NCBI RefSeq assembly: GCF_000153105.1
Contig: NZ_CH672377.1
Coordinates: 346,985-406,723 of the forward strand
Length of the DNA: 59,739 nucleotides
Reading direction: 5' to 3'
Source of the DNA: Blastopirellula marina DSM 3645
GTDB lineage: Bacteria; Planctomycetota; Planctomycetia; Pirellulales; Pirellulaceae
Shown here: one piece after another, positions 24,238 through 34,473 of the stretch
How the letters are laid out: every line of letters begins with the position of its first letter
Position numbering within the stretch: the first letter of the stretch is position 1
Translations under genes and position numbers: made by a program
Notes under the pieces: generated by a model
Database searches by the model: none
The model's input: the letters and a program-made list of their open reading frames with translations, nothing else
Told to the model about the DNA's origin: nothing

Positions 24238-24426
24238 TGCGCGGCCAGGCGCGAATCTCACCAGAGAGGCTCGCAACTTCGATCAAAATAGCGATGTCTT
24301 GGCGGCCGCACAAAAGCGAACTAGAATCCTTTCCACCACACCTTAGATTGCTATACCTGCCCTCGCCCCATGAACTCTCGACAACACATGGATCGCGTTG
24401 GGGCGATTGATTGGAGAACGCCAAGC

Positions 24427-27036
24427 GTGCAGATATCGTTTTTCTCGAATTCGCGTCGTTTCTGTTGTCTCGTTCTCGCCAGCATCTTCTTGTCGACTTG
24501 GGCGATCCCTTCGGTCGAAGCTCGCGATTGGCTCAAGTGGCAAGAGCTGCCGCCGCTGCCTAACGACCTGGGTGTCGCGGGACCTTTCGCCGGCGTCGAC
24601 AACGACGCGCTGATCGTCGCCGGCGGCGCTAATTTTCCGCGCCCCGTCTGGGAGAACGACAAGCAGTGGGTCGATCAGATTCATGTGCTGGTCAAACAGC
24701 AAGCGGAATACGTCTGGCGTGACGGTGGACGATTGCCGAGACCGATCGCCTATGGCGCCGCCGTTTCGACGCCGAGCGGCCTGTTATGTATCGGCGGCAA
24801 CGACGCCGAGCAAGTTTATAGCGACGTCTTTCTCTTGCGTTGGGATGGAACGAAAGTCACGACAATCCCCTGCCCTGCACTGCCGGCGCCTTGCTGCTAT
24901 TGCCAAGCGGCGGTGATCGGCACAACGGCTTACGTCGCCTGCGGTCAACAAGACCTGGGGCTGGAGAGCGCGACGAACACCCTCTGGGCGCTGGATCTCA
25001 CCAAGTTGTCCGAAACGGTCCCCCAACCATGGAAGTCGCTTCCGCCGCTTCCGGGACCAACGCGCGCCTTTGCGTTGGTAGCGGCGCAACATGACGGATT
25101 TCGCGATTCGCTGTATGTGATCGGCGGGCGTCGTTTGGAAGCAGGCGCTGCTCAATTCTTACGCGACGTCTGGCGCTATGAACCGATGGCCAACGAGTGG
25201 AAGCGTCGCCGCGATGCGCCGCGCAATATCATGGCCGGCGAAGCGATTGGAATGGGACAAAGCCATATCTTGATCTTGGGGGGAGCCGACGAAAGCAACT
25301 TTGACAATTCGGACGAACTCAAAGATCAGCACCCCGGTTTTCCTCGCGAAGCGTTGAGCTATCACACAATTACCGACTCTTGGTCATCGGCCGGCGCGAT
25401 TCCAGAAAACGTGGTGACGACCACGGCGGTTCGCTGGGATGGAGCGATCATCTTGCCGAGCGGTGAAATCCGGCCTCGCGTTCGCACTCCGCATATCTGG
25501 CGCATTACGCCGATTGCTTCCGATAAAAGCTTCGGCACGCTCAACTATCTCGTCCTCTTCGCTTATCTCTTGGCGATGGTCGGCGTCGGCGTTTATTTCG
25601 CGCGGTTGAATAAAAACACCGACGACTTCTTTCGCGGCGGGATGCGCATTCCGTGGTGGGCGGCAGGCTGCAGCATCTTCGCCACCATGTTAAGTTCGCT
25701 GACCTTTACCGGGATCCCCTCCAAAGCGTACGCCCAGGATTGGGTCTACGCGATTGGCAACTTGACGATTCCACTGGTTGCGATTGTCGCCGTCTACGTC
25801 GCACTACCTTTCTATCGCCGAATCGACGCAACTAGCGCCTATGAATATTTGGAAATGCGTTTTGGCCGACCGGTTCGCGTTTTCGCCAGCGCCAGTTTCG
25901 CTCTGTTCCATATCTTTCGGATGGCGGTCGTCATGTCGTTGACCGGTTTGGCTCTCGCGGTGGCGACTCCCCTTTCGCCGGCGCAGTCGGTCTTGCTGAT
26001 GGGCGTACTGAGCATTCTCTATTGCACCATGGGTGGGATCGAAGCGGTGATTTGGACCGATACGATTCAAACCGTCGTGCTGCTCGGAGGAGCGATGCTG
26101 GCGATCGGCTTGCTCATTTCGGGAGTCGACGGCGGCGTCAGCGGCTTTCTTTCGATCGCCGCGAGCGACAGCAAGTTCAACCTGACGAACCTGCACTGGG
26201 ATGCAACCGATGCGCAAACGGCGTTTTGGGTGATCGTCGTCGGCTCGATCGCGCAAAACCTCTCGTCGTACACCGCGGACCAGGCAGTCGTACAGCGCTA
26301 CATGACAACCCCCAACGAGACGCTCGCCGCTCGATCGATTTGGACCAACGCCGTCCTCGCGGTTCCGGCGACGCTCCTCTTCTTTGGCATCGGCACGGCG
26401 CTGCATGCGTTCTATCAATCGAATCCCGAGAAGTTGGATCCCACGATTACGACCGATCAAATATTCCCCCTGTTCATTGCCCGCGAAATCCCCGCCGGGC
26501 TCGCCGGCCTGATTGTAGCCGGTATCTTTGCGGCGGCTCAGTCGACCGTTTCGACCAGCATGAACTCGACGGCGACGACGATTGTGACCGACTTTCTCAA
26601 ACCGCTAAATTGCTGTCGAACCGAGCATGGCTATTTGAACGCCGCGCGACTTTGTACGCTGCTGATTGGGATCGCCGGCACAAGTCTAGGACTCGTCTTC
26701 GCTAATCCTGAGATTCGCTCGTTATTTGACGCGTTCATCATGGTGATCGGTCTCTTCATGGGCGTACTGGGAGGTCTGTTTCTGTTGGGTGCGCTCACTC
26801 GGCGAGCCAATCAGTTTGGCGCGATGACTGGGGCTCTGGTGGGCGCCGGCGTCATGTTCGTCCTGTGGAAATACTCCCCGCTCAACGGTTATCTCTACAC
26901 CGCGTGCGGAATCACGGTTTGTTTTGTCGTCGGCTATGTCGCTAGTTTGGCTACGCCGAAATCGAGTCGCGATCTCGCAGGCCTGACGATCTTTGACGAG
27001 CGCAATACGGCGGCGGACGTCTCAACGGATGAATAA
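24427..27036 (+). CDS. Kelch (NanM-like mutarotase) fused to sodium:solute symporter
   Basis: About 869 aa. A signal-like N-terminus ([20 protein letters not shown]) is followed by a six-bladed Kelch propeller (about 35-365) of the cyclically permuted mutarotase/NanM type: [58 protein letters not shown]. From about 375 to the end is a sodium:solute symporter domain with about 13 membrane helices, including [20 protein letters not shown] and [14 protein letters not shown]. The propeller would be periplasmic and could epimerise a sugar, perhaps sialic acid, for the attached transporter. GTG 24427 is chosen for GGAG upstream and the signal; ATGs at 24370 and 24388 are alternatives. Confidence 0.85.
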
Positions 27037-27171: not shown

Positions 27172-27978
27172 ATGTCGATTCCCGTCTCTGAATTGATCCA
27201 GCAGCTTTGGGACACGTTTCGCCAGATGAATCCCCAAGCGGGTCAGATTGTCGACCTGTTGGCGCAGCGCGGCGATCCTTTGCAAAACGATCACATCGCG
27301 TTTCGCACCTTCAATGATCCGCGCATCGGCGTTGCTCGCTTGGCCGAGCCATTTCTCGCCGACGGATATGTCGTCGGCGACGAGTATCACTTTGCTGAAA
27401 AGAAACTTTACGCCCAACATTTCGAGCATGCGGACCCCAGTCATCCAAAGATCTTTATCAGCGAGTTGCTGCTTGAGAAGTTTGATCTGCCGCTGCGGCA
27501 AACGGTCGATAAACTGATCGAACAAATCGATCTAACGGCGATCGACGCCGATCATCCGCTGTGCATCGCCGGCCGACCTTGGCACGTTTCGTACGAAGTC
27601 TGGAAATCGCTCCGTGATCAAAGTGAGTACGCCGCGTGGATGGCTGCGCATGGATATTGCGCCAACCACTTCACGGTCTTCGTTAACGCGTTAAAGTCAG
27701 TCTCGTCGTTGAAGGAACTGAATGCGTTGCTCGTTGCGCAAGGATTTCAGCTCAACCGCGAAGGAGGCGAGATCAAAGGTTCTCCCAGCGTCTTTCTCGA
27801 ACAATCGTCGACCACCGCGCCGGAGATCGAAGTCGAGTTCACCGATGGCGTCCATGCGGCGCCGGGCTGCTACTTTGAGTTCGCTCAGCGTTACCCGCTG
27901 CCTAACGGTAAACTCTTCTCTGGTTTCGTCGCCAAAAGCGCCGACAAAATCTTTCAAAGCACCGACAGTCGCAGCTAG
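27172..27978 (+). CDS. DUF1338 protein, 2-oxoadipate dioxygenase/decarboxylase-like
   Basis: 268 aa. DUF1338 is a VOC-like fold; characterised members (HglS/YdcJ) are Fe(II) enzymes that turn 2-oxoadipate into D-2-hydroxyglutarate in lysine breakdown. Seen here are NDHIAFRTFNDPRIG (metal-binding His about residue 41), YHFAEKKLYAQHFEH, HGYCANHFTVFVN with a second His, and PGCYFEFAQRYPLPNGKLFSGF near the C-terminus with the Glu ligand. It is shorter than HglS (about 450 aa), so it belongs to the compact branch and substrate is uncertain. It converges with astB, and the two genes share the palindrome CTAG (27975-27978) as overlapping stops. Confidence 0.8.
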   Translation: MSIPVSELIQQLWDTFRQMNPQAGQIVDLLAQRGDPLQNDHIAFRTFNDPRIGVARLAEPFLADGYVVGDEYHFAEKKLYAQHFEHADPSHPKIFISELLLEKFDLPLRQTVDKLIEQIDLTAIDADHPLCIAGRPWHVSYEVWKSLRDQSEYAAWMAAHGYCANHFTVFVNALKSVSSLKELNALLVAQGFQLNREGGEIKGSPSVFLEQSSTTAPEIEVEFTDGVHAAPGCYFEFAQRYPLPNGKLFSGFVAKSADKIFQSTDSRS

Positions 27979-29300
27979 GGCAACAAGCGTTCGTTTCCCA
28001 AGATCTGCCCTAGATCGTCAAATGCGCGCTCGACTTCGTTCACAAGATCGGGGTCGGCCAAATCGGCGATCGACAGTTCATCGCGGTAGTGCTTCTCGAT
28101 CCAGACTTGCAGCCGTTGGTGCAACTGCGGGGTCCAAATAATCGAACGCGGCAAAGCGGCGAACTCGTCTCGCGTCATCACCACGCGCAGCCGTAGACAA
28201 GCGGGGCCGCCGCCGTTGTGCATGCTCTGCCGAACATCGACAAACTCGCACTGGCTGATTGGATTCTCTTCCCTTAACAACCGCTCGATCACTTGCTGCG
28301 CCGCTCGAGAACGCTCGCACTCCGCCGGGCAAATCAGCGTCATCGATCCGCCGGTTGTCGTCAGCAATTGACTATTGAAAAAGTATGTCCGCACCGCTTC
28401 TGCCAGCGGCAGCTCTTGGTCACAAATCACGAGCGTCGTCAAATCGCCGCCGAACGGATGCTGCAATCGGCTCAACACGGCCGCTTGATCGACAAACGCA
28501 TGCTCGTGCACCAAAAGAACCGAAGCATTACCAACCGCAATCACGTCGTTATGAAACACGCCGGCGTCAATCGCTCGGCGACTCTGCTGAGCAAAAACGG
28601 TTACCTCCGGCGATAGTCCATGCTGCTTGGCGATTTGTTCCGACGCTTGTTTGGCTTGTCGCGCCGGAAATCGAGTTTCTGGATCGGTCTTCTCAGCGCC
28701 GCTGCGACCATAGACAAACAGCTCCACTCCACGCTGCTCGTATCGCCGGCAAAACCGCGTATGATTGGCCGCGCCTTCATCGCTGTACTCGATCCGGCCG
28801 GCCAGCGGATCGTGCACCACAAAAAATCGTTCGTCGGCAAAAATCTCTCGCAACAGCTTCGTCGTTTGCTCTACTTCCAGCTTCCGATGCGGCATACTGA
28901 TCAGATTGGCCGGCGTCAAATGGATGCGTCCGTCCAAAGTATCGGCGCTTGGTGACACGGTGGCTGCGTTCGCGGCCCACATCGCCGAAGCGCTATAGGC
29001 GACGCTCAACAGATCTGGCCGCTCTCTCGCAACCGCAGCAATCACGTGGCGCGCATCGCCGCTGAATCCATGTTCGCGTAAAAAACCAAAATGGGGTCGC
29101 CGCTGCGGCGGGAAGAACGCTTGCGGTACGCCGAGCTCCGCGACAAGCTTCATCTTCGCAAGTCCCTCCAGCGCCGCGCGCCGCGGTGACGAGCTTTGAT
29201 GCCGGTGGGAAAGGGAGGCCAAATTGCCGGCCGATAGCCCGCCAAAGTGATGCGTGGGACCGAGCAAACCGTCAAAGTTGACTTCCATCGCTCCGTTCAC
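27975..29300 (-). CDS. astB: N-succinylarginine dihydrolase
   Basis: 441 aa. AstB converts N2-succinylarginine to N2-succinylornithine, CO2 and two NH3. Family signatures: VNFDGLLGPTHHFGGLSAGN at the start, ASAMWAANAATVSPSADT, HVHLTPANL-like RIHLTPANLISMPHR, GVFHNDVIAVGN with the catalytic His, and MHNGGGPACLRLRV with the catalytic Cys. The GTG start at 29300 overlaps the TGA of astD (GTGA), with GAGG at good distance, so the genes are translationally coupled. It is the last gene of the AST operon. Confidence 0.95.
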   Translation of the reverse strand: MNGAMEVNFDGLLGPTHHFGGLSAGNLASLSHRHQSSSPRRAALEGLAKMKLVAELGVPQAFFPPQRRPHFGFLREHGFSGDARHVIAAVARERPDLLSVAYSASAMWAANAATVSPSADTLDGRIHLTPANLISMPHRKLEVEQTTKLLREIFADERFFVVHDPLAGRIEYSDEGAANHTRFCRRYEQRGVELFVYGRSGAEKTDPETRFPARQAKQASEQIAKQHGLSPEVTVFAQQSRRAIDAGVFHNDVIAVGNASVLLVHEHAFVDQAAVLSRLQHPFGGDLTTLVICDQELPLAEAVRTYFFNSQLLTTTGGSMTLICPAECERSRAAQQVIERLLREENPISQCEFVDVRQSMHNGGGPACLRLRVVMTRDEFAALPRSIIWTPQLHQRLQVWIEKHYRDELSIADLADPDLVNEVERAFDDLGQILGNERLLP

Positions 29301-30730
29301 CGATCATTCCTCTCCGGCGGCGTCGCCGGTTCGAGTCCAGCAACCGGAATGTTGCAGAAATCGGTCGCGAAATAGCCCGCCGGTCGATAGTTGCCGCTCT
29401 GTCCCATTCCGCCGAACGGCAGTCTGCCGCTAGCGCCGGTGGTCGGCAGATTCCAATTCACCAGTCCGGCGTTCACCTGACGACGGAAGCGCTGAAAGTC
29501 ATCGTGACCCCCCCCCAGAAGTCCGGCGACCAAACCAAAACGCGTCTGATTCGCTTCGCGGATCGCCGCGCTAAAATCGTCGACGCGAATCACCTGCAAC
29601 AGCGGTCCAAACATTTCTTCATCCGATCGCGATCCGCACGTCGTTACATCGATCAAGCCTGGCGAAAGAAACGCCGGGCCGCTCGGCATCCGTCGACTTT
29701 CCAAGATCGGAACTGCGCCGCCTGCGACCAACCGCTGCTGCTGGCTCAAGATTCGCTCGGCGGCGGCCGCGTGAATCAGTGGTCCCATAAACGGCTCTGG
29801 ATTCGCATCGGCTGCGCCCACGGCAATTTGGGAGGTCTTCTCCTGCAACTGCTGTAGAAAAGCGGCGCTCTCGCCTACCAAGATCAACCGGCGAACGCAC
29901 GTGCAACGTTGGCCCGATGTCAAAAACGCCGATTGAATCACCTGATTGAGCATCGACAGGTTTTGGTCAGGCTCCAGCACGACCAACGGATTATTCCCCC
30001 CCAACTCGAGCGCTAGCAGCACTTCGGGCCGATGGACCAGCGTCTCACGCAGCTTCAACCCGGTCGTCAGACTTCCGGTAAAGAAGAGTCCGCGTAAGTC
30101 GGCATGTTCGGCAATCAAGCGTCCTGTCGCAGCGCCTCCTTGCAGTAGGTTGAACACGCCCGGCGGCAGTCCCGCTTCGTTCCACAGTTTGGTCGTTAGC
30201 TCGGCTACTTGCGGCGTCAGTTCGCTAGGCTTGAACAGGACGCTGTTGCCGGCAAGCAGCGCCGGAACGATTTGCCCGTTGGCGATATGGGCCGGAAAAT
30301 TAAAGGGGCCATAGACCGCGACGACCCCCAACGGACGATACCAGGTCCGTCCGATCCGCCCGTTTAGATCCAACGTCTCTTCTGGGCGGCGGCGCTGCTG
30401 GGCATTTATCGTGACTTCGATTTTTGCTGCAACCGCGTCCACTTCGGTCGCCGCGTCCCAGAGCGGCTTTCCTACTTCGGCGGAGATTGCTTGCGTCATC
30501 GCATCGCGATTCGCGCGAACCGCGCCCGCAAAAGCACGCAGCGAAGTCGCGCGCTCTTCCCAAGGGAGCGCACTCCAGGGAATCTGCGCCTCGACCGCGG
30601 CGAGAAAAGCGTCATCCACATCCGCGCTGTTGGCGGCGTTTCCTTTCCACACAACCTGCTCGGTCGCCGGATTGAGCGAAGTAAACGGCTCGCCGCTTCC
30701 TTCGCGCCATTGTCCATCGATTTGTAACAT
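29297..30730 (-). CDS. astD: N-succinylglutamate 5-semialdehyde dehydrogenase
   Basis: 477 aa. NAD-linked oxidation of succinylglutamate semialdehyde to succinylglutamate. Aldehyde-dehydrogenase marks: WYRPLGVVAVYGPFNFPAHI, GNSVLFKPSELTP, FFTGSLTTGLKLRE, ALELGGNNPLVVLEPD with the general-base Glu, SGQRCTCVRRL with the catalytic Cys, and EMFGPLLQVIRVD. ATG 30730 is chosen because it lies two bases after the astA stop (TAGCGATG) and gives the normal AstD start MLQIDGQW; the longer frame upstream is antisense-like sequence inside astA. Confidence 0.94.
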   Translation of the reverse strand: MLQIDGQWREGSGEPFTSLNPATEQVVWKGNAANSADVDDAFLAAVEAQIPWSALPWEERATSLRAFAGAVRANRDAMTQAISAEVGKPLWDAATEVDAVAAKIEVTINAQQRRRPEETLDLNGRIGRTWYRPLGVVAVYGPFNFPAHIANGQIVPALLAGNSVLFKPSELTPQVAELTTKLWNEAGLPPGVFNLLQGGAATGRLIAEHADLRGLFFTGSLTTGLKLRETLVHRPEVLLALELGGNNPLVVLEPDQNLSMLNQVIQSAFLTSGQRCTCVRRLILVGESAAFLQQLQEKTSQIAVGAADANPEPFMGPLIHAAAAERILSQQQRLVAGGAVPILESRRMPSGPAFLSPGLIDVTTCGSRSDEEMFGPLLQVIRVDDFSAAIREANQTRFGLVAGLLGGGHDDFQRFRRQVNAGLVNWNLPTTGASGRLPFGGMGQSGNYRPAGYFATDFCNIPVAGLEPATPPERNDR

Positions 30731-30732
30731 CG

Positions 30733-31782
30733 CTAGATCTCCGCTCTCAGATCGACATAGCGCACCGAGTCCCCGATCTGCACTTCCAAGGCGTCGGCCA
30801 ACGCTCGTTCTACCACCACCCCATCCTCTCGCTGCAAAAGCAAACCGCCAGCCGCGCGAAACGTGGTCCCCACCGTTGTGGCGATACATTTCCGAAACGC
30901 CCCCAACACGGCAGGCGTCTCCAGAATCTCGACAATCACGCCGACACGGCTATCGCGAATCGCGCGAATCTCTGCTCGTTTGCACTGCAAAATCGGCCCC
31001 GCTTCAAAGATATCGACCAGATCCCGCAGGCGCAAGCCTTCACTTTCTAACAAGCGTCGCGCGGGTGCGGTGAGTTCATGAACGGCGCCGATCGACGCCT
31101 GAGCTGCGGCCGGAAGCAGCGCCACATAAATCGGGTGTCGCGGCATCAGCTTTTCGATGAACTCTTTGTTGTACAAACTCAACATATCGGCATTGGGAAA
31201 ATCAATCCCAAAGAAGTGATGCCCAAGCGCTTCCCAAAAGGGACTGTTCCCCTGCGCGTCGATAACTCCTCGCATCTCCGCAATCACTTCGGATTCAAAC
31301 AATTCGGGATAATTCGCCATGAAGAGAAATCGGCACAGCGAAAGGACGCGTCCCACTCCTCCACCCCGATAATCGCTCCGCAGAAACAAACTGCCGATCT
31401 CGGTCGGCCCGTCATGTTCTCTCAGCAGATAGAGGACCTGATGCTCGTAGTGCAACTGCAGCGTTTCCGACTTATGGATGTCGGTTCGGATTTGATAGGC
31501 GTAAAACGGCTTGAATCCTCCCACCTTCGGCACAATCCCGCAGGTGCCGACGATTTGCTTGGACTGTTTCTCCTCCATCACGAACAAAAACAGTTCGTGC
31601 TGCACCGAGTCATCATCCATCTGGGAAAACGAGCGCACGCTTTGCCGCACCCGTTTTTCCATGAGCGCCGCATCACGGGGAAGCGTCGTCAGCCCCGTCG
31701 CGGTAAGTTGAGCCAATTCGTTCAACTGCGTCAGATCATCGATCTGCACCGGGCGAACGACCAGTTGCGCTGCTTGGCTCAT
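30733..31782 (-). CDS. astA: Arginine N-succinyltransferase
   Basis: 349 aa. AstA transfers succinyl from succinyl-CoA to the alpha-amino group of arginine, the first step of the AST pathway. It has a GNAT-like fold: VRPVQIDDLTQLNELAQLTA at the start, VGTCGIVPKVGGFKPFYAYQ, EIGSLFLRSDYRGGGVGRVL (acyl-CoA loop), PFWEALGHHFFGIDFPNADM and ILQCKRAEIRAIRDS. It starts 12 bases after the upstream transaminase stop, within one operon. Confidence 0.95.
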   Translation of the reverse strand: MSQAAQLVVRPVQIDDLTQLNELAQLTATGLTTLPRDAALMEKRVRQSVRSFSQMDDDSVQHELFLFVMEEKQSKQIVGTCGIVPKVGGFKPFYAYQIRTDIHKSETLQLHYEHQVLYLLREHDGPTEIGSLFLRSDYRGGGVGRVLSLCRFLFMANYPELFESEVIAEMRGVIDAQGNSPFWEALGHHFFGIDFPNADMLSLYNKEFIEKLMPRHPIYVALLPAAAQASIGAVHELTAPARRLLESEGLRLRDLVDIFEAGPILQCKRAEIRAIRDSRVGVIVEILETPAVLGAFRKCIATTVGTTFRAAGGLLLQREDGVVVERALADALEVQIGDSVRYVDLRAEI

Positions 31783-31793
31783 ACGGAACTCTC

Positions 31794-33191
31794 CTATTGC
31801 TCATGATGAAGACGCAGCAGCGTTTGCTCCAGAATATCGCAGACCGCATCGATCTCGTCATCCGTGACCGCCAACAGCGACGGCAAAAAGCGAATCCGCG
31901 TCGGCTCGGAGCCGGCCGCAAATGCGATCACCCCTGCCGAGAAGAGTTCAAACAGCACCTTCTTCGCCATGCCGCTCGATCCGTCCAAAGCGGTCAGCGC
32001 AACCATCCCGCCGACGCCCCACGGCCCGCTGATGACATCCGGGTGTTGTCGCCGCAGCTTTTCAAACCGCTCGCAAAACCGCCGCTGAATCTGGGCGTTG
32101 CGTCCGTCAGCGCCATAGAAACCGCCGGTCTCCAGTTGAGTGAGAATAAACCGCGCGGCCAACAGCGCGCTGGTCGACGCGGTGAATGTTTGGCTCAACA
32201 ACCCCGGCTGGGGATTCATCGCATCGCCAAACAGGGTCGCACAGACCTGCGTCATTTTGCCAACGGTCACGATGTCGGCGTATTCGTCCAACTGCAACAT
32301 TTGATAGGCGAAGGGAGCCAGCGTGCGACCGAAGGTTTGAATTTCATCAAAGTAGATCGGCACGCTCGCTTGTCGCAGTTCCTGGCAGAGGACTTCAAAG
32401 AATGCTCGCGGCGCCGTGCGATAGCCTCCTTCTCCTTGCACGAGTTCCATCATGAAACCGCAATGCGCAGCAGGATAGCGCGCCAGATGCGACCGGAGCG
32501 CCGTTAGCGCCGCTTGCTGACTCTCTTCTTTTCGGTCGGCGTCGTAGAACGGCACAAAGTCGACCGGAACCGTCGCCGGAAGGCCGGCGCGATACTGCGG
32601 GCGATCGGTCACTTGAGAAAGCACTAGCGATCTGCCTGCAAATGCGTGATCGAACGCTAAGATCCGCTGCGAGCCGGCGCGATATTGAAACAAGATCTTC
32701 AGCGCGTTCTCATTCGCCATCGCTCCGCTTGAAGTTAGAAAGCAATGGTCGAGCTTGGCGCCTTGTCGATTGGCGAGCGTCACCAGTTGGCGACAAACTT
32801 CCAGCGATTCGCTGTTTTGCTGCAAGTTTCCCTGCATCACCGTATCTTCCAGCGCGGCGTCGATCAGAATGTCGAGCAACTGCGGATGACTATGACCGCA
32901 GACATGAACGCCGATTCCCGAAATCATATCGTACTTAACGCCGCCATCGGCCAGTTCGACCAGACTGCCGCGACCGATGCCGCTGCCGAGAAAAGGATAG
33001 TAGAGCGCATTGCCGCGTAGAGCGGCGAACTGATCGAGCGCTGCTTTATAGTCCGTTTGCAACTCGGCTTGCGCGTCGCAGCGAGCAAGTTGTCCCGCAT
33101 GATCGGCCAGCGCCTCGCGAAGCAACAGCTTGGCCTGGGCGACTCGCGGGTCCGCTCGCAAACTCTCCGCATTCAACTTCGGCTGATCCAT
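31794..33191 (-). CDS. Class III aminotransferase, probable succinylornithine transaminase
   Basis: 465 aa. PLP-dependent class III aminotransferase: MISGIGVHVCGHSHPQLLDI, FLTSSGAMANENALKI, HAFAGRSLVLSQVT, ELVQGEGGYRTAP, IYFDEIQTFGRT (cofactor Asp) and DIVTVGKMTQVCATLF with the Schiff-base Lys. By position it should perform the AstC step, succinylornithine to succinylglutamate semialdehyde. It is longer than and not closely like the ~406-residue AstC/ArgD proteins (it resembles the lysine/ornithine-type group), so I withhold the symbol. ATG 33191 has GGAG 8 to 9 bases upstream. Confidence 0.85.
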   Translation of the reverse strand: MDQPKLNAESLRADPRVAQAKLLLREALADHAGQLARCDAQAELQTDYKAALDQFAALRGNALYYPFLGSGIGRGSLVELADGGVKYDMISGIGVHVCGHSHPQLLDILIDAALEDTVMQGNLQQNSESLEVCRQLVTLANRQGAKLDHCFLTSSGAMANENALKILFQYRAGSQRILAFDHAFAGRSLVLSQVTDRPQYRAGLPATVPVDFVPFYDADRKEESQQAALTALRSHLARYPAAHCGFMMELVQGEGGYRTAPRAFFEVLCQELRQASVPIYFDEIQTFGRTLAPFAYQMLQLDEYADIVTVGKMTQVCATLFGDAMNPQPGLLSQTFTASTSALLAARFILTQLETGGFYGADGRNAQIQRRFCERFEKLRRQHPDVISGPWGVGGMVALTALDGSSGMAKKVLFELFSAGVIAFAAGSEPTRIRFLPSLLAVTDDEIDAVCDILEQTLLRLHHEQ

Positions 33192-33276
33192 ACCTATATC
33201 TCCGTTGCGCTGCCTACTCTTCAATTATACGCCATCGCTGAAAAAAGAAGTGGGACGGTCGGCGGTCGAAGTTCGC

Positions 33277-34473
33277 TTAAATCTCTGCGCGACTCTTGGT
33301 AATGAGCAAACTTGCCGACAATTTCGCGCGCTCGGCCAGACTGTCGCGCCACATGAATTCGGCCGTCGAATGAATGTTGCCGCCGCGAACTCCCAGCGTG
33401 TCCACGTTGGGCACGCCGAGCGCCGTCAAGCGATTTCCATCGCAAACGCCGCCGGAAGTTTCCCATTGCAAGTGGAGCCCCAACTGCTGACCGCAGTCGC
33501 AAATCTGCGTCAGCAGTTCTTTGTGCCGCGCGTCGAGCAATTTCGGAGGCGCGGAGAATCGACCATGCTGCGTCAGGGAGATTCCCTCCGTCGTTCGCGC
33601 TACGATCTGGTTGATCGCCGCCGCGATCTCTCTTTCCAAGTCAGGCGCCGGATAGCGAATGTTAAAACGGACAACCGCCGCGTCAGGCACCACATTGTAC
33701 GGCGCGCCTCCTTCGATCCGCGCTACATTGATCGTCACGCCGGGCCAACGACCATTGAGATTGTGCAGATCCGCGGCCACCGTAGCGGCGGCGACAACGG
33801 CGTTTCGCCCTAGAGCGAACTCGCGCCCGGCATGGGCCGATTTGCCGTGCGCAACGATCGAAAAATTTCCAGAGCCGCCGCGTTGTCCAACCAGATTGCC
33901 ATTGGGCAAGCTCGGCTCATAGAGCAGCCCAAAGTCGGCGCCCGGCGCGTACTTGGCGAATACGTCGGCCGAGGAAGGAGAACCGATCTCTTCGTCGGTA
34001 TTCAAGATCACCCGCCAACCCAGTTGCTGATCGCCGGACTCGGCGACATAACGCTCCAGCGCATGGAGTGCGTACAGTAGAACGACCAAACCTCCCTTGG
34101 CGTCGGCGACGCCGGGTCCTGCGATCTCGGCTGTTGAGCAATGGACTGTTTGAAAGGAAGAATCGGCAGGATAGACCGTATCCAGATGGATCGATAAAAC
34201 GGCCTGTAGCGGCGCTTCACGGCGACGCGTCATCACCAGCGCGTCTGCTAGCGGCATGGCCACCGACTCGCCGCGTGAGTCCACTTCGCTGTGACTCGCT
34301 AAGGGGACGCGGCAAATCTCATCGGCAAGCGGCTCGAAGTGGCTGACGACCTCTTCCGTAAGGCGTTTTACGCCAGCGAGATGATACGTCCCCGAGTTAA
34401 TCGACGCCCAGTCGATCAGCAGATCTTCCATCGCGATTTGCTGCGAGTCGATCCATCGGAGTACCGCATCCAT
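33277..34473 (-). CDS. M20-family metallohydrolase, candidate succinylglutamate desuccinylase
   Basis: 398 aa. M20 peptidase/deacylase fold (ArgE, DapE, carboxypeptidase G2 relatives). Zinc-site marks: LSIHLDTVY (His, and Asp two residues on), GPGVADAKGGLVVLLYALH (bridging Asp), NTDEEIGSPSS (general-base Glu and Glu ligand), YEPSLPNGN, and the C-terminal GNIHSTAEFM with the last His. The dimerisation insert contains GKSAHAGREFALGRNAV. It is the first gene of the AST operon, and no AstE (M14-like) gene is present, so I infer it cleaves succinylglutamate to glutamate plus succinate. 85 bp separate it from the transaminase. Confidence 0.85.
   Translation of the reverse strand: MDAVLRWIDSQQIAMEDLLIDWASINSGTYHLAGVKRLTEEVVSHFEPLADEICRVPLASHSEVDSRGESVAMPLADALVMTRRREAPLQAVLSIHLDTVYPADSSFQTVHCSTAEIAGPGVADAKGGLVVLLYALHALERYVAESGDQQLGWRVILNTDEEIGSPSSADVFAKYAPGADFGLLYEPSLPNGNLVGQRGGSGNFSIVAHGKSAHAGREFALGRNAVVAAATVAADLHNLNGRWPGVTINVARIEGGAPYNVVPDAAVVRFNIRYPAPDLEREIAAAINQIVARTTEGISLTQHGRFSAPPKLLDARHKELLTQICDCGQQLGLHLQWETSGGVCDGNRLTALGVPNVDTLGVRGGNIHSTAEFMWRDSLAERAKLSASLLITKSRAEI

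What the first reader, a model, noticed from the sequence alone, without database searches (positions are those of the whole stretch)
27975..34473. Complete arginine succinyltransferase operon in which an M20 hydrolase replaces AstE and an unusual class III transaminase replaces AstC
Sequence shows five tightly packed minus-strand genes: M20 hydrolase, class III aminotransferase, astA, astD, astB, with a GTGA overlap (astD/astB) and a two-base gap (astA/astD). AstA, AstB and AstD are clear. The classical AstE (an M14-like zinc enzyme) is absent and the transaminase is 465 aa and not ArgD/AstC-like. Inference: the M20 enzyme (ArgE/DapE fold) removes succinate from succinylglutamate, a non-orthologous replacement, and the pathway is complete in a planctomycete, outside the gammaproteobacterial setting where AST is best known.
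Basis: partly seen in the sequence, partly recalled or inferred. Interest (0 to 1): 0.7.

Follow-up and report, generated by a model that had tools for sequence, protein, structure and literature searches.

The report
Arginine-degradation operon with replacement last enzyme
A planctomycete carries a complete set of genes for breaking down arginine in which two of the textbook enzymes appear to be replaced by unrelated or very distant ones, and the likely replacement for the last step sits in the same gene clusters in other bacteria, including Caulobacter, where its family is still named only "hydrolase".

Summary
The five-gene minus-strand cluster (M20 hydrolase, class III aminotransferase, astA, astD, astB; 27975-34473) is real and open. 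No AstE was found in the genome. The M20 belongs to NCBIfam NF005602/PRK07338, named only "hydrolase". In 60 genomes (own and relatives) the 13 with this M20 over its cut-off all lie among the 14 with AstB, though the genes are often unlinked. Of the best 80 M20 loci from a scan of species genomes, 64 have AstA within the flank and 11 of the other 16 have it elsewhere; E. coli AstE matches none of the 80 flanks. Four gammaproteobacterial clusters hold an AstC/ArgD-type transaminase, astA, astD, astB and this M20, with no AstE in the cluster. I conclude that the M20 is a non-orthologous succinylglutamate desuccinylase (about 0.87) and the aminotransferase a separate clade standing in for AstC (about 0.8). 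Against it: in a 294-genome phylum sample 14 of 27 AstB genomes lack the M20, 12 of them one family, so another solution must exist there. No activity was tested.

The parts
33277..34473 (-). M20-family metallohydrolase (NF005602/PRK07338), proposed non-orthologous succinylglutamate desuccinylase (AstE step)
   Evidence: 487 bits to NF005602, cut-off 357; Pfam Peptidase_M20 + M20_dimer; closest solved structures carboxypeptidase G2; H96, D98, D124, E161, E162, E186, H368 kept in 93 of 93 members aligned
31794..33191 (-). Class III PLP aminotransferase of a separate clade, proposed succinylornithine transaminase (AstC step)
   Evidence: Aminotran_3 165 bits; below the cut-offs of the 25 best NCBIfam models shown (argD 129 of 410, astC 95 of 610); one clade of 31 rows apart from AstC/ArgD, SH-aLRT 100
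30733..31782 (-). astA, arginine N-succinyltransferase
   Evidence: PF04958 396 bits; TIGR03243 362 of 284 bits
29297..30730 (-). astD, succinylglutamate-semialdehyde dehydrogenase
   Evidence: PRK09457 597 of 514 bits; TIGR03240 565 of 579; ATG at 30730, 2 nt after the astA stop
27975..29300 (-). astB, N-succinylarginine dihydrolase
   Evidence: TIGR03241 558 of 538 bits, PRK13281 609 of 452; GTG start inside the astD stop, GTGA
27172..27978 (+). Convergent short DUF1338 (HGLS, PF07063) protein, an AST-linked accessory gene of unknown role
   Evidence: PF07063 99 bits; 272 bits to 3LHO 'putative hydrolase', 114 bits to 6W1K hydroxyglutarate synthase; beside astB in the genus and in AST clusters of other phyla

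Best explanation
The cluster encodes a complete arginine succinyltransferase (AST) pathway. AstA succinylates arginine. AstB hydrolyses succinylarginine to succinylornithine, CO2 and two NH3. The class III aminotransferase moves the side-chain amino group of succinylornithine to 2-oxoglutarate, as AstC does in E. coli. AstD oxidises succinylglutamate semialdehyde. The M20 metallohydrolase, related to carboxypeptidase G2, cleaves N-succinylglutamate to glutamate and succinate, replacing the M14-type AstE. Shown here: gene content, order, co-occurrence, no detectable AstE, conserved catalytic residues. Inferred: the substrates of the M20 and the aminotransferase, and the metal (two zinc ions by analogy). 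Reaction chemistry of AstA-AstE is recalled.
For: (1) No AstE found in the genome. (2) In 60 genomes, own included, AstB is in 14 and NF005602 M20 over the cut-off in 13, all inside the 14; Fisher p = 2.7e-12, not corrected for relatedness. The exception, G020, has a partial AstB at the end of a 7.5 kb contig. The genes are often far apart, e.g. about 4.3 Mb in the single-contig genome G009 and 2 Mb in G030, so the association is not just adjacency. (3) The best 80 of 542 M20 relatives: AstA in the flank of 64, AstD 55, AstB 40, AstE 0; of the other 16, 11 have AstA elsewhere. (4) L126, L130, L133 and L142 (Gammaproteobacteria) hold an AstC/ArgD-type transaminase, M20, AstA, AstD and AstB, with no AstE in the cluster. 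(5) The aminotransferase clade (over 170 bits) and AstC/ArgD type (over 250 bits) occur in 18 and 9 of the 80 flanks, never together. (6) PF04952 is in 1 of 36 of these genomes, and that protein (Neptuniibacter) is an aspartoacylase, 338 of 180 bits, AstE 32 of 306. (7) Named controls: E. coli has AstB and AstE and does not ring for NF005602 at 1e-50; Caulobacter vibrioides has AstB, rings for NF005602 and not for AstE; a C. vibrioides locus scores 595 of 357. (8) Plasmids: M20 in 5 records; in the three followed up it lies beside astA/astB (Legionella adelaidensis, Sphingomonas parapaucimobilis; both annotated 'hydrolase') or under 4 kb from AstB (Novosphingobium humi). (9) Catalytic residues kept in 93 of 93.
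Against: No activity was tested. In a phylum-wide sample of 294 genomes only 13 of 27 AstB genomes have the M20 at 300 bits or more (8 of 27 over the curated cut-off; the 300-bit line was drawn after seeing the scores); 12 of the 14 without it belong to family f30. Three genomes (G063, G327, G335) have the M20 without detected AstB. 23 further genomes have weaker matches (about 187-263 bits) and no AstB, and three control genomes (Thermus, Deinobacterium, Thermotoga) ring at 1e-50 without AstB, so relatives just outside the family do other things. G020 has aminotransferase, AstA and AstD but no M20 over the cut-off. For the aminotransferase: G014 and G331 have it without AstB, G033 has AstB and M20 without it, and an ArgD is present in the genome. 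5 of 80 M20 genomes gave no AstA. Flanks are often cut by contig ends. M20 enzymes change acyl specificity readily (recalled).
Confidence: 0.87

Rival explanations
1. The M20 removes succinate from N-succinylornithine (an ArgE-like short cut giving ornithine), and the aminotransferase and AstD serve a side branch.
For: M20 homologues ArgE and DapE act on N-acylated diamino acids (recalled); weaker matches to ArgE/DapE models.
Against: M20 flanks keep AstD in 55 of 80 and one of the two transaminase types in 27 of 80, which a short cut would make pointless and which would leave succinylglutamate without a hydrolase. The best models outside its own family are glutamate carboxypeptidase and carboxypeptidase G2, not ArgE/DapE.
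Confidence: 0.07
2. The AstE step is done by one of the two PF24827 (AstE/AspA-like, M14) proteins elsewhere in the genome, and the M20 is a linked peptidase or aminoacylase of other function.
For: Two PF24827 proteins exist, 122 and 111 bits.
Against: Neither passes an AstE, AspA or DoeB cut-off; one lies beside a RimK gene, the other between symporter and SDR genes; neither has the PF04952 domain. This does not explain why the M20 tracks AstB across genomes. Their own distribution among relatives was not searched.
Confidence: 0.04
3. The cluster is biosynthetic: succinylated arginine synthesis of the kind reported for Bacteroides, run through N-succinyl intermediates.
For: M20 and class III aminotransferases also occur in acylated arginine biosynthesis (recalled).
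Against: AstA and AstB are catabolic and AstB's reaction is irreversible (recalled); a separate ArgD lies beside ornithine carbamoyltransferase elsewhere in the genome.
Confidence: 0.02

Closest known systems
E. coli astCADBE operon (AST pathway)
   Same: AstA, AstD, AstB in the same order; genes overlapping or nearly so; same overall chemistry inferred
   Different: AstE (M14 type) replaced by an M20 enzyme placed first; AstC replaced by a separate class III clade; convergent DUF1338 gene
NCBIfam NF005602 / PRK07338 'hydrolase' (Caulobacter M20-astA-astD-astB clusters)
   Same: Same M20 family over the cut-off; same ast neighbours
   Different: The Caulobacter flanks examined do not hold the aminotransferase clade found here, and the family has no named substrate in NCBIfam
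Carboxypeptidase G2 / glutamate carboxypeptidase (M20)
   Same: Closest solved structure by sequence (78 bits); aligned metal ligands; also cleaves an acyl-glutamate bond (recalled)
   Different: Different subfamily: PRK06133 150 of 349 bits; R198 and R217 invariant in the 93 members aligned
AstC/ArgD transaminases; L-lysine 6-transaminase
   Same: Class III family; lysine 6-transaminase is the best solved match by sequence
   Different: Far below family cut-offs and a separate clade on a long branch

Membership tests
AST pathway (arginine succinyltransferase) | astA, astB and astD present | tested here: met
AST pathway (arginine succinyltransferase) | succinylornithine transaminase activity | not testable with these tools
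   candidate in cluster; clade mostly AST-linked
AST pathway (arginine succinyltransferase) | succinylglutamate desuccinylase activity | not testable with these tools
   M20 candidate by context and co-occurrence
AstE (M14-type, PF04952/TIGR03242) | AstE/AspA hybrid domain PF04952 in the genome | tested here: not met
   0 hits in own genome; control rings in E. coli
AstE (M14-type, PF04952/TIGR03242) | a PF24827 protein passing an AstE cut-off | tested here: not met
   two PF24827 proteins; 21 of 170 bits and no match
AstC (TIGR03246) | score over the curated cut-off | tested here: not met
   aminotransferase 95 of 610 bits; best in genome 369
AstC/ArgD clade | groups with AstC/ArgD in a tree | tested here: not met
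   31 AT rows one side of a branch, SH-aLRT 100, apart from AstC/ArgD (quick method, long branches flagged)
NF005602/PRK07338 M20 hydrolases | score over the curated cut-off | tested here: met
   487 of 357 bits
M20 metallohydrolases | conserved metal ligands and general base | tested here: met
   H96, D98, D124, E161, E162, E186, H368 identical in 93 of 93; aligned with carboxypeptidase G2; residue roles recalled
HGLS/DUF1338 | His-His-Glu metal site and substrate-binding Arg | tested here: inconclusive
   corresponding motifs (HIAFR, NHFT, FEFA) align with 3LHO and 6W1K by eye; substrate untested; residue roles from passages of PMC7286885

The most novel reading that the evidence does not exclude
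AST exists in two parallel enzyme tool-kits: the enterobacterial one (AstC + M14 AstE) and a widely spread one (M20 desuccinylase, in several phyla with its own transaminase clade); and the short DUF1338 protein found in AST clusters of four phyla (Planctomycetota, Omnitrophota, Fibrobacterota, Gammaproteobacteria) is a sixth, unrecognised Fe(II) oxygenase or damage-repair step of arginine breakdown rather than a lysine-pathway 2-oxoadipate enzyme.
Probability: 0.25. Interest if true: 0.65.

Novelty: new variant of a known kind. Interest (0 to 1): 0.52.

Why it matters
It proposes a substrate for an enzyme family still called 'hydrolase' in NCBIfam of June 2026, would fill the missing last step of arginine breakdown in Caulobacter and many other bacteria at once, and means that genome tools which look only for AstE or AstC would call the pathway incomplete where it is not. 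It can be tested at once in a laboratory strain.

Tried and rejected
Rejected: AstE elsewhere in the genome; AstC elsewhere (best is an ArgD next to ornithine carbamoyltransferase); an oddity of one genus; biosynthetic direction (see rivals).

Led nowhere: what replaces the M20 in family f30. AstA-, AstD- and AstB-like genes are present in G156, G231 and G289, but in these MAGs my simple ORF calls did not resolve the neighbours. G099, also f30, has an aspartoacylase (PRK02259, 322 of 180 bits) about 60 kb from its ast genes, which might serve. Literature: ten searches of the open-access library (listings with starts of abstracts; passages seen in PMC9007349, PMC7286885, and PMC2262068) showed no paper that assigns an M20 enzyme to the AstE step; subscription papers, preprints and databases are not covered.

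Full report
WHAT IS THERE. The five reported genes exist on the minus strand of 27975-34473, all open. In transcription order: M20 hydrolase (34473-33277), class III aminotransferase (33191-31794), astA (31782-30733), astD (30730-29297), astB (29300-27975). Spacings are 85, 11, 2 and -4 nt. AstA, AstB and AstD each pass at least one curated NCBIfam cut-off; AstA and AstD fall a little short of the strictest ones (TIGR03244, TIGR03240). The window is part of a 6.66 Mb, 3-contig genome, 99.59% complete. Planctomycete-type cytochrome domains next door and Thalassoglobus as the nearest named row in both trees support a planctomycete.

IS ASTE ABSENT? PF04952 has no match in the genome, while the same search rings in E. 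coli. The broader catalytic domain PF24827 finds two proteins. One follows a RimK gene, the other lies between a sodium:solute symporter and an SDR gene. Neither comes near an AstE cut-off: 21 of 170 bits, and no match. No protein passes the AstC cut-off. The best, at 369 of 610 bits, passes the ArgD model TIGR00707 (441 of 410) and lies next to ornithine carbamoyltransferase (348 of 281, TIGR00658), so it is presumably biosynthetic. An ArgD could in principle also do the AstC reaction (recalled for E. coli).

WHAT IS THE M20? It passes NF005602 (PRK07338, 'hydrolase') at 487 of 357 bits; the next models, glutamate carboxypeptidase and others, are far below their cut-offs. The closest solved structures are carboxypeptidase G2. 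Across 13 members from the own genome and relatives and 80 from a scan of species genomes, the aligned metal ligands and general base are unchanged in 93 of 93, and R198, R217 and D358 are also invariant. R198 is shared by one and R217 by two of the seven other M20 proteins in that alignment; at D358 the others have gaps. The 93 form one side of a branch against those seven (SH-aLRT 94, just under the 95 mark; long branches flagged).

CO-OCCURRENCE. In 60 genomes, own included, AstB is in 14 and NF005602 over the cut-off in 13, all within those 14. Fisher's p is 2.7e-12, not corrected for relatedness. The missing one, G020, has a partial AstB at the end of a 7.5 kb contig. In several genomes the genes have come apart: M20 with the aminotransferase and AstA in one place, AstB in another; in the single-contig genomes G009 and G030 they are about 4.3 and 2 Mb apart. 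So the link is not just an inherited neighbourhood. The aminotransferase is in 14 of 60 at 450 bits or more: 13 of the AstB genomes (not G033) plus G014, which has no AstB.

PHYLUM-WIDE SAMPLE, INCLUDING THE BAD NEWS. In 294 genomes of the phylum AstB is in 27. The M20 is over the cut-off in 9 and over 300 bits in 16 (the 300-bit line was drawn after seeing the scores). The aminotransferase is in 20 at 1e-60, PF04952 in 1. All 16 M20 genomes have the aminotransferase; 13 of the 27 AstB genomes have the M20, three M20 genomes lack AstB, and 14 AstB genomes lack the M20. Twelve of those 14 are family f30, whose AstB scores are lower. Their desuccinylase is unknown. A further 23 genomes have weaker M20 matches (about 187-263 bits) and no AstB, as have three control genomes, Thermus, Deinobacterium and Thermotoga, at 1e-50, so relatives just outside the family must have other substrates. 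The single PF04952 genome, G099, has aminotransferase-AstA-AstD-AstB without the M20, and its PF04952 protein is an aspartoacylase by score.

OTHER PHYLA. A scan of species genomes with the M20 alignment kept the best 80 of 542 relatives. Within up to 10 kb (often less, at contig ends) 64 of 80 have AstA, 55 AstD, 40 AstB, 18 the aminotransferase clade, 9 an AstC/ArgD-type transaminase, 5 the short DUF1338 and 0 AstE; no flank has both transaminase types. Of the 16 without AstA, AstB or AstD nearby, 11 have AstA elsewhere and 5 do not. The loci come from nine phyla as labelled in the tree, among them Caulobacter, Phenylobacterium, Sphingobium, Novosphingobium, Kordiimonas, Thalassospira, Neptuniibacter, Pontibacterium, Sessilibacter, Desulfomonile, Parachlamydiaceae, Omnitrophota, Fibrobacteres, Sumerlaeota, Verrucomicrobia and many planctomycetes. 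The most telling are L126, L130, L133 and L142, gammaproteobacteria with an AstC/ArgD-type transaminase, astA, astD and astB plus the M20 and no AstE in the cluster. Of 36 of the 80 genomes searched for PF04952, 35 have none; the one hit, in Neptuniibacter (L130), is an aspartoacylase, 338 of 180 bits against 32 of 306 for AstE. Among 72,556 plasmid records five carry the M20 at 1e-50. Legionella adelaidensis has hydrolase-astA-astD-astB and Sphingomonas parapaucimobilis hydrolase-astA-astB; in Novosphingobium humi AstB lies under 4 kb away. None of the five is among the 60 listed of 64 AstE-bearing plasmid records (four not listed).

THE AMINOTRANSFERASE. It is class III by Pfam but far below the cut-offs of the NCBIfam models shown, and nearest to lysine 6-transaminase among solved structures. 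Thirty-one members from six named phyla form one side of a very long, fully supported branch, apart from AstC/ArgD and from the genome's other class III enzymes. Its usual link to AstA, and its never sharing a flank with an AstC/ArgD type, argue that it does the AstC step. G014 and G331 carry it without AstB, so a second role cannot be excluded.

THE EXTRA GENE. The convergent DUF1338 gene (27172-27978) overlaps the astB stop and is kept in the four genomes of the genus, own included. The same short type is in AST clusters of Thalassoglobus, an Omnitrophota MAG, a Fibrobacteres MAG, Neptuniibacter and Pontibacterium, beside astD in G138 and G076, and some 5.5 kb from the cluster in G116. Its closest solved structure is 3LHO, from Shewanella frigidimarina (passage of PMC7286885). 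[quoted passage not shown] the arginine-pathway setting makes another role worth testing. Only one paper in the library held both 'DUF1338' and 'arginine', and it is this one.

VERDICT. It is a new variant of a known pathway, with an unnamed enzyme family as its likely last step, spread over many phyla. The remaining uncertainty is biochemical, plus the unexplained family f30.

Noticed in passing
27172-27978 (+): Short DUF1338 (HGLS) protein, convergent with astB and sharing stop-codon bases; the same type sits in AST clusters of several phyla (L069, L084, L111, L130, L142, L151, L155). Function in arginine breakdown unknown.
   Followed up: partly
G014 (L061), G331 (L157): The AST-linked aminotransferase clade occurs without AstB in the genome and without ast genes in the 20 kb viewed, so it may have a second role or be a relic.
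   Followed up: partly
L152, L153, L158 (family f30): Twelve f30 genomes have AstB, three viewed also AstA- and AstD-like genes, but no PRK07338 M20 at 1e-50; their desuccinylase is unknown.
   Followed up: partly
24370-27036 (+): One 888-aa ORF joins an N-terminal kelch/mutarotase (NanM-like) part to a sodium:solute symporter; similar along nearly the whole length in the three other genomes of the genus.
   Followed up: no
L150:6926-7804 (G099): The only PF04952 protein found in 294 genomes of the phylum, an aspartoacylase by score, in a genome whose AST cluster lacks the M20.
   Followed up: partly
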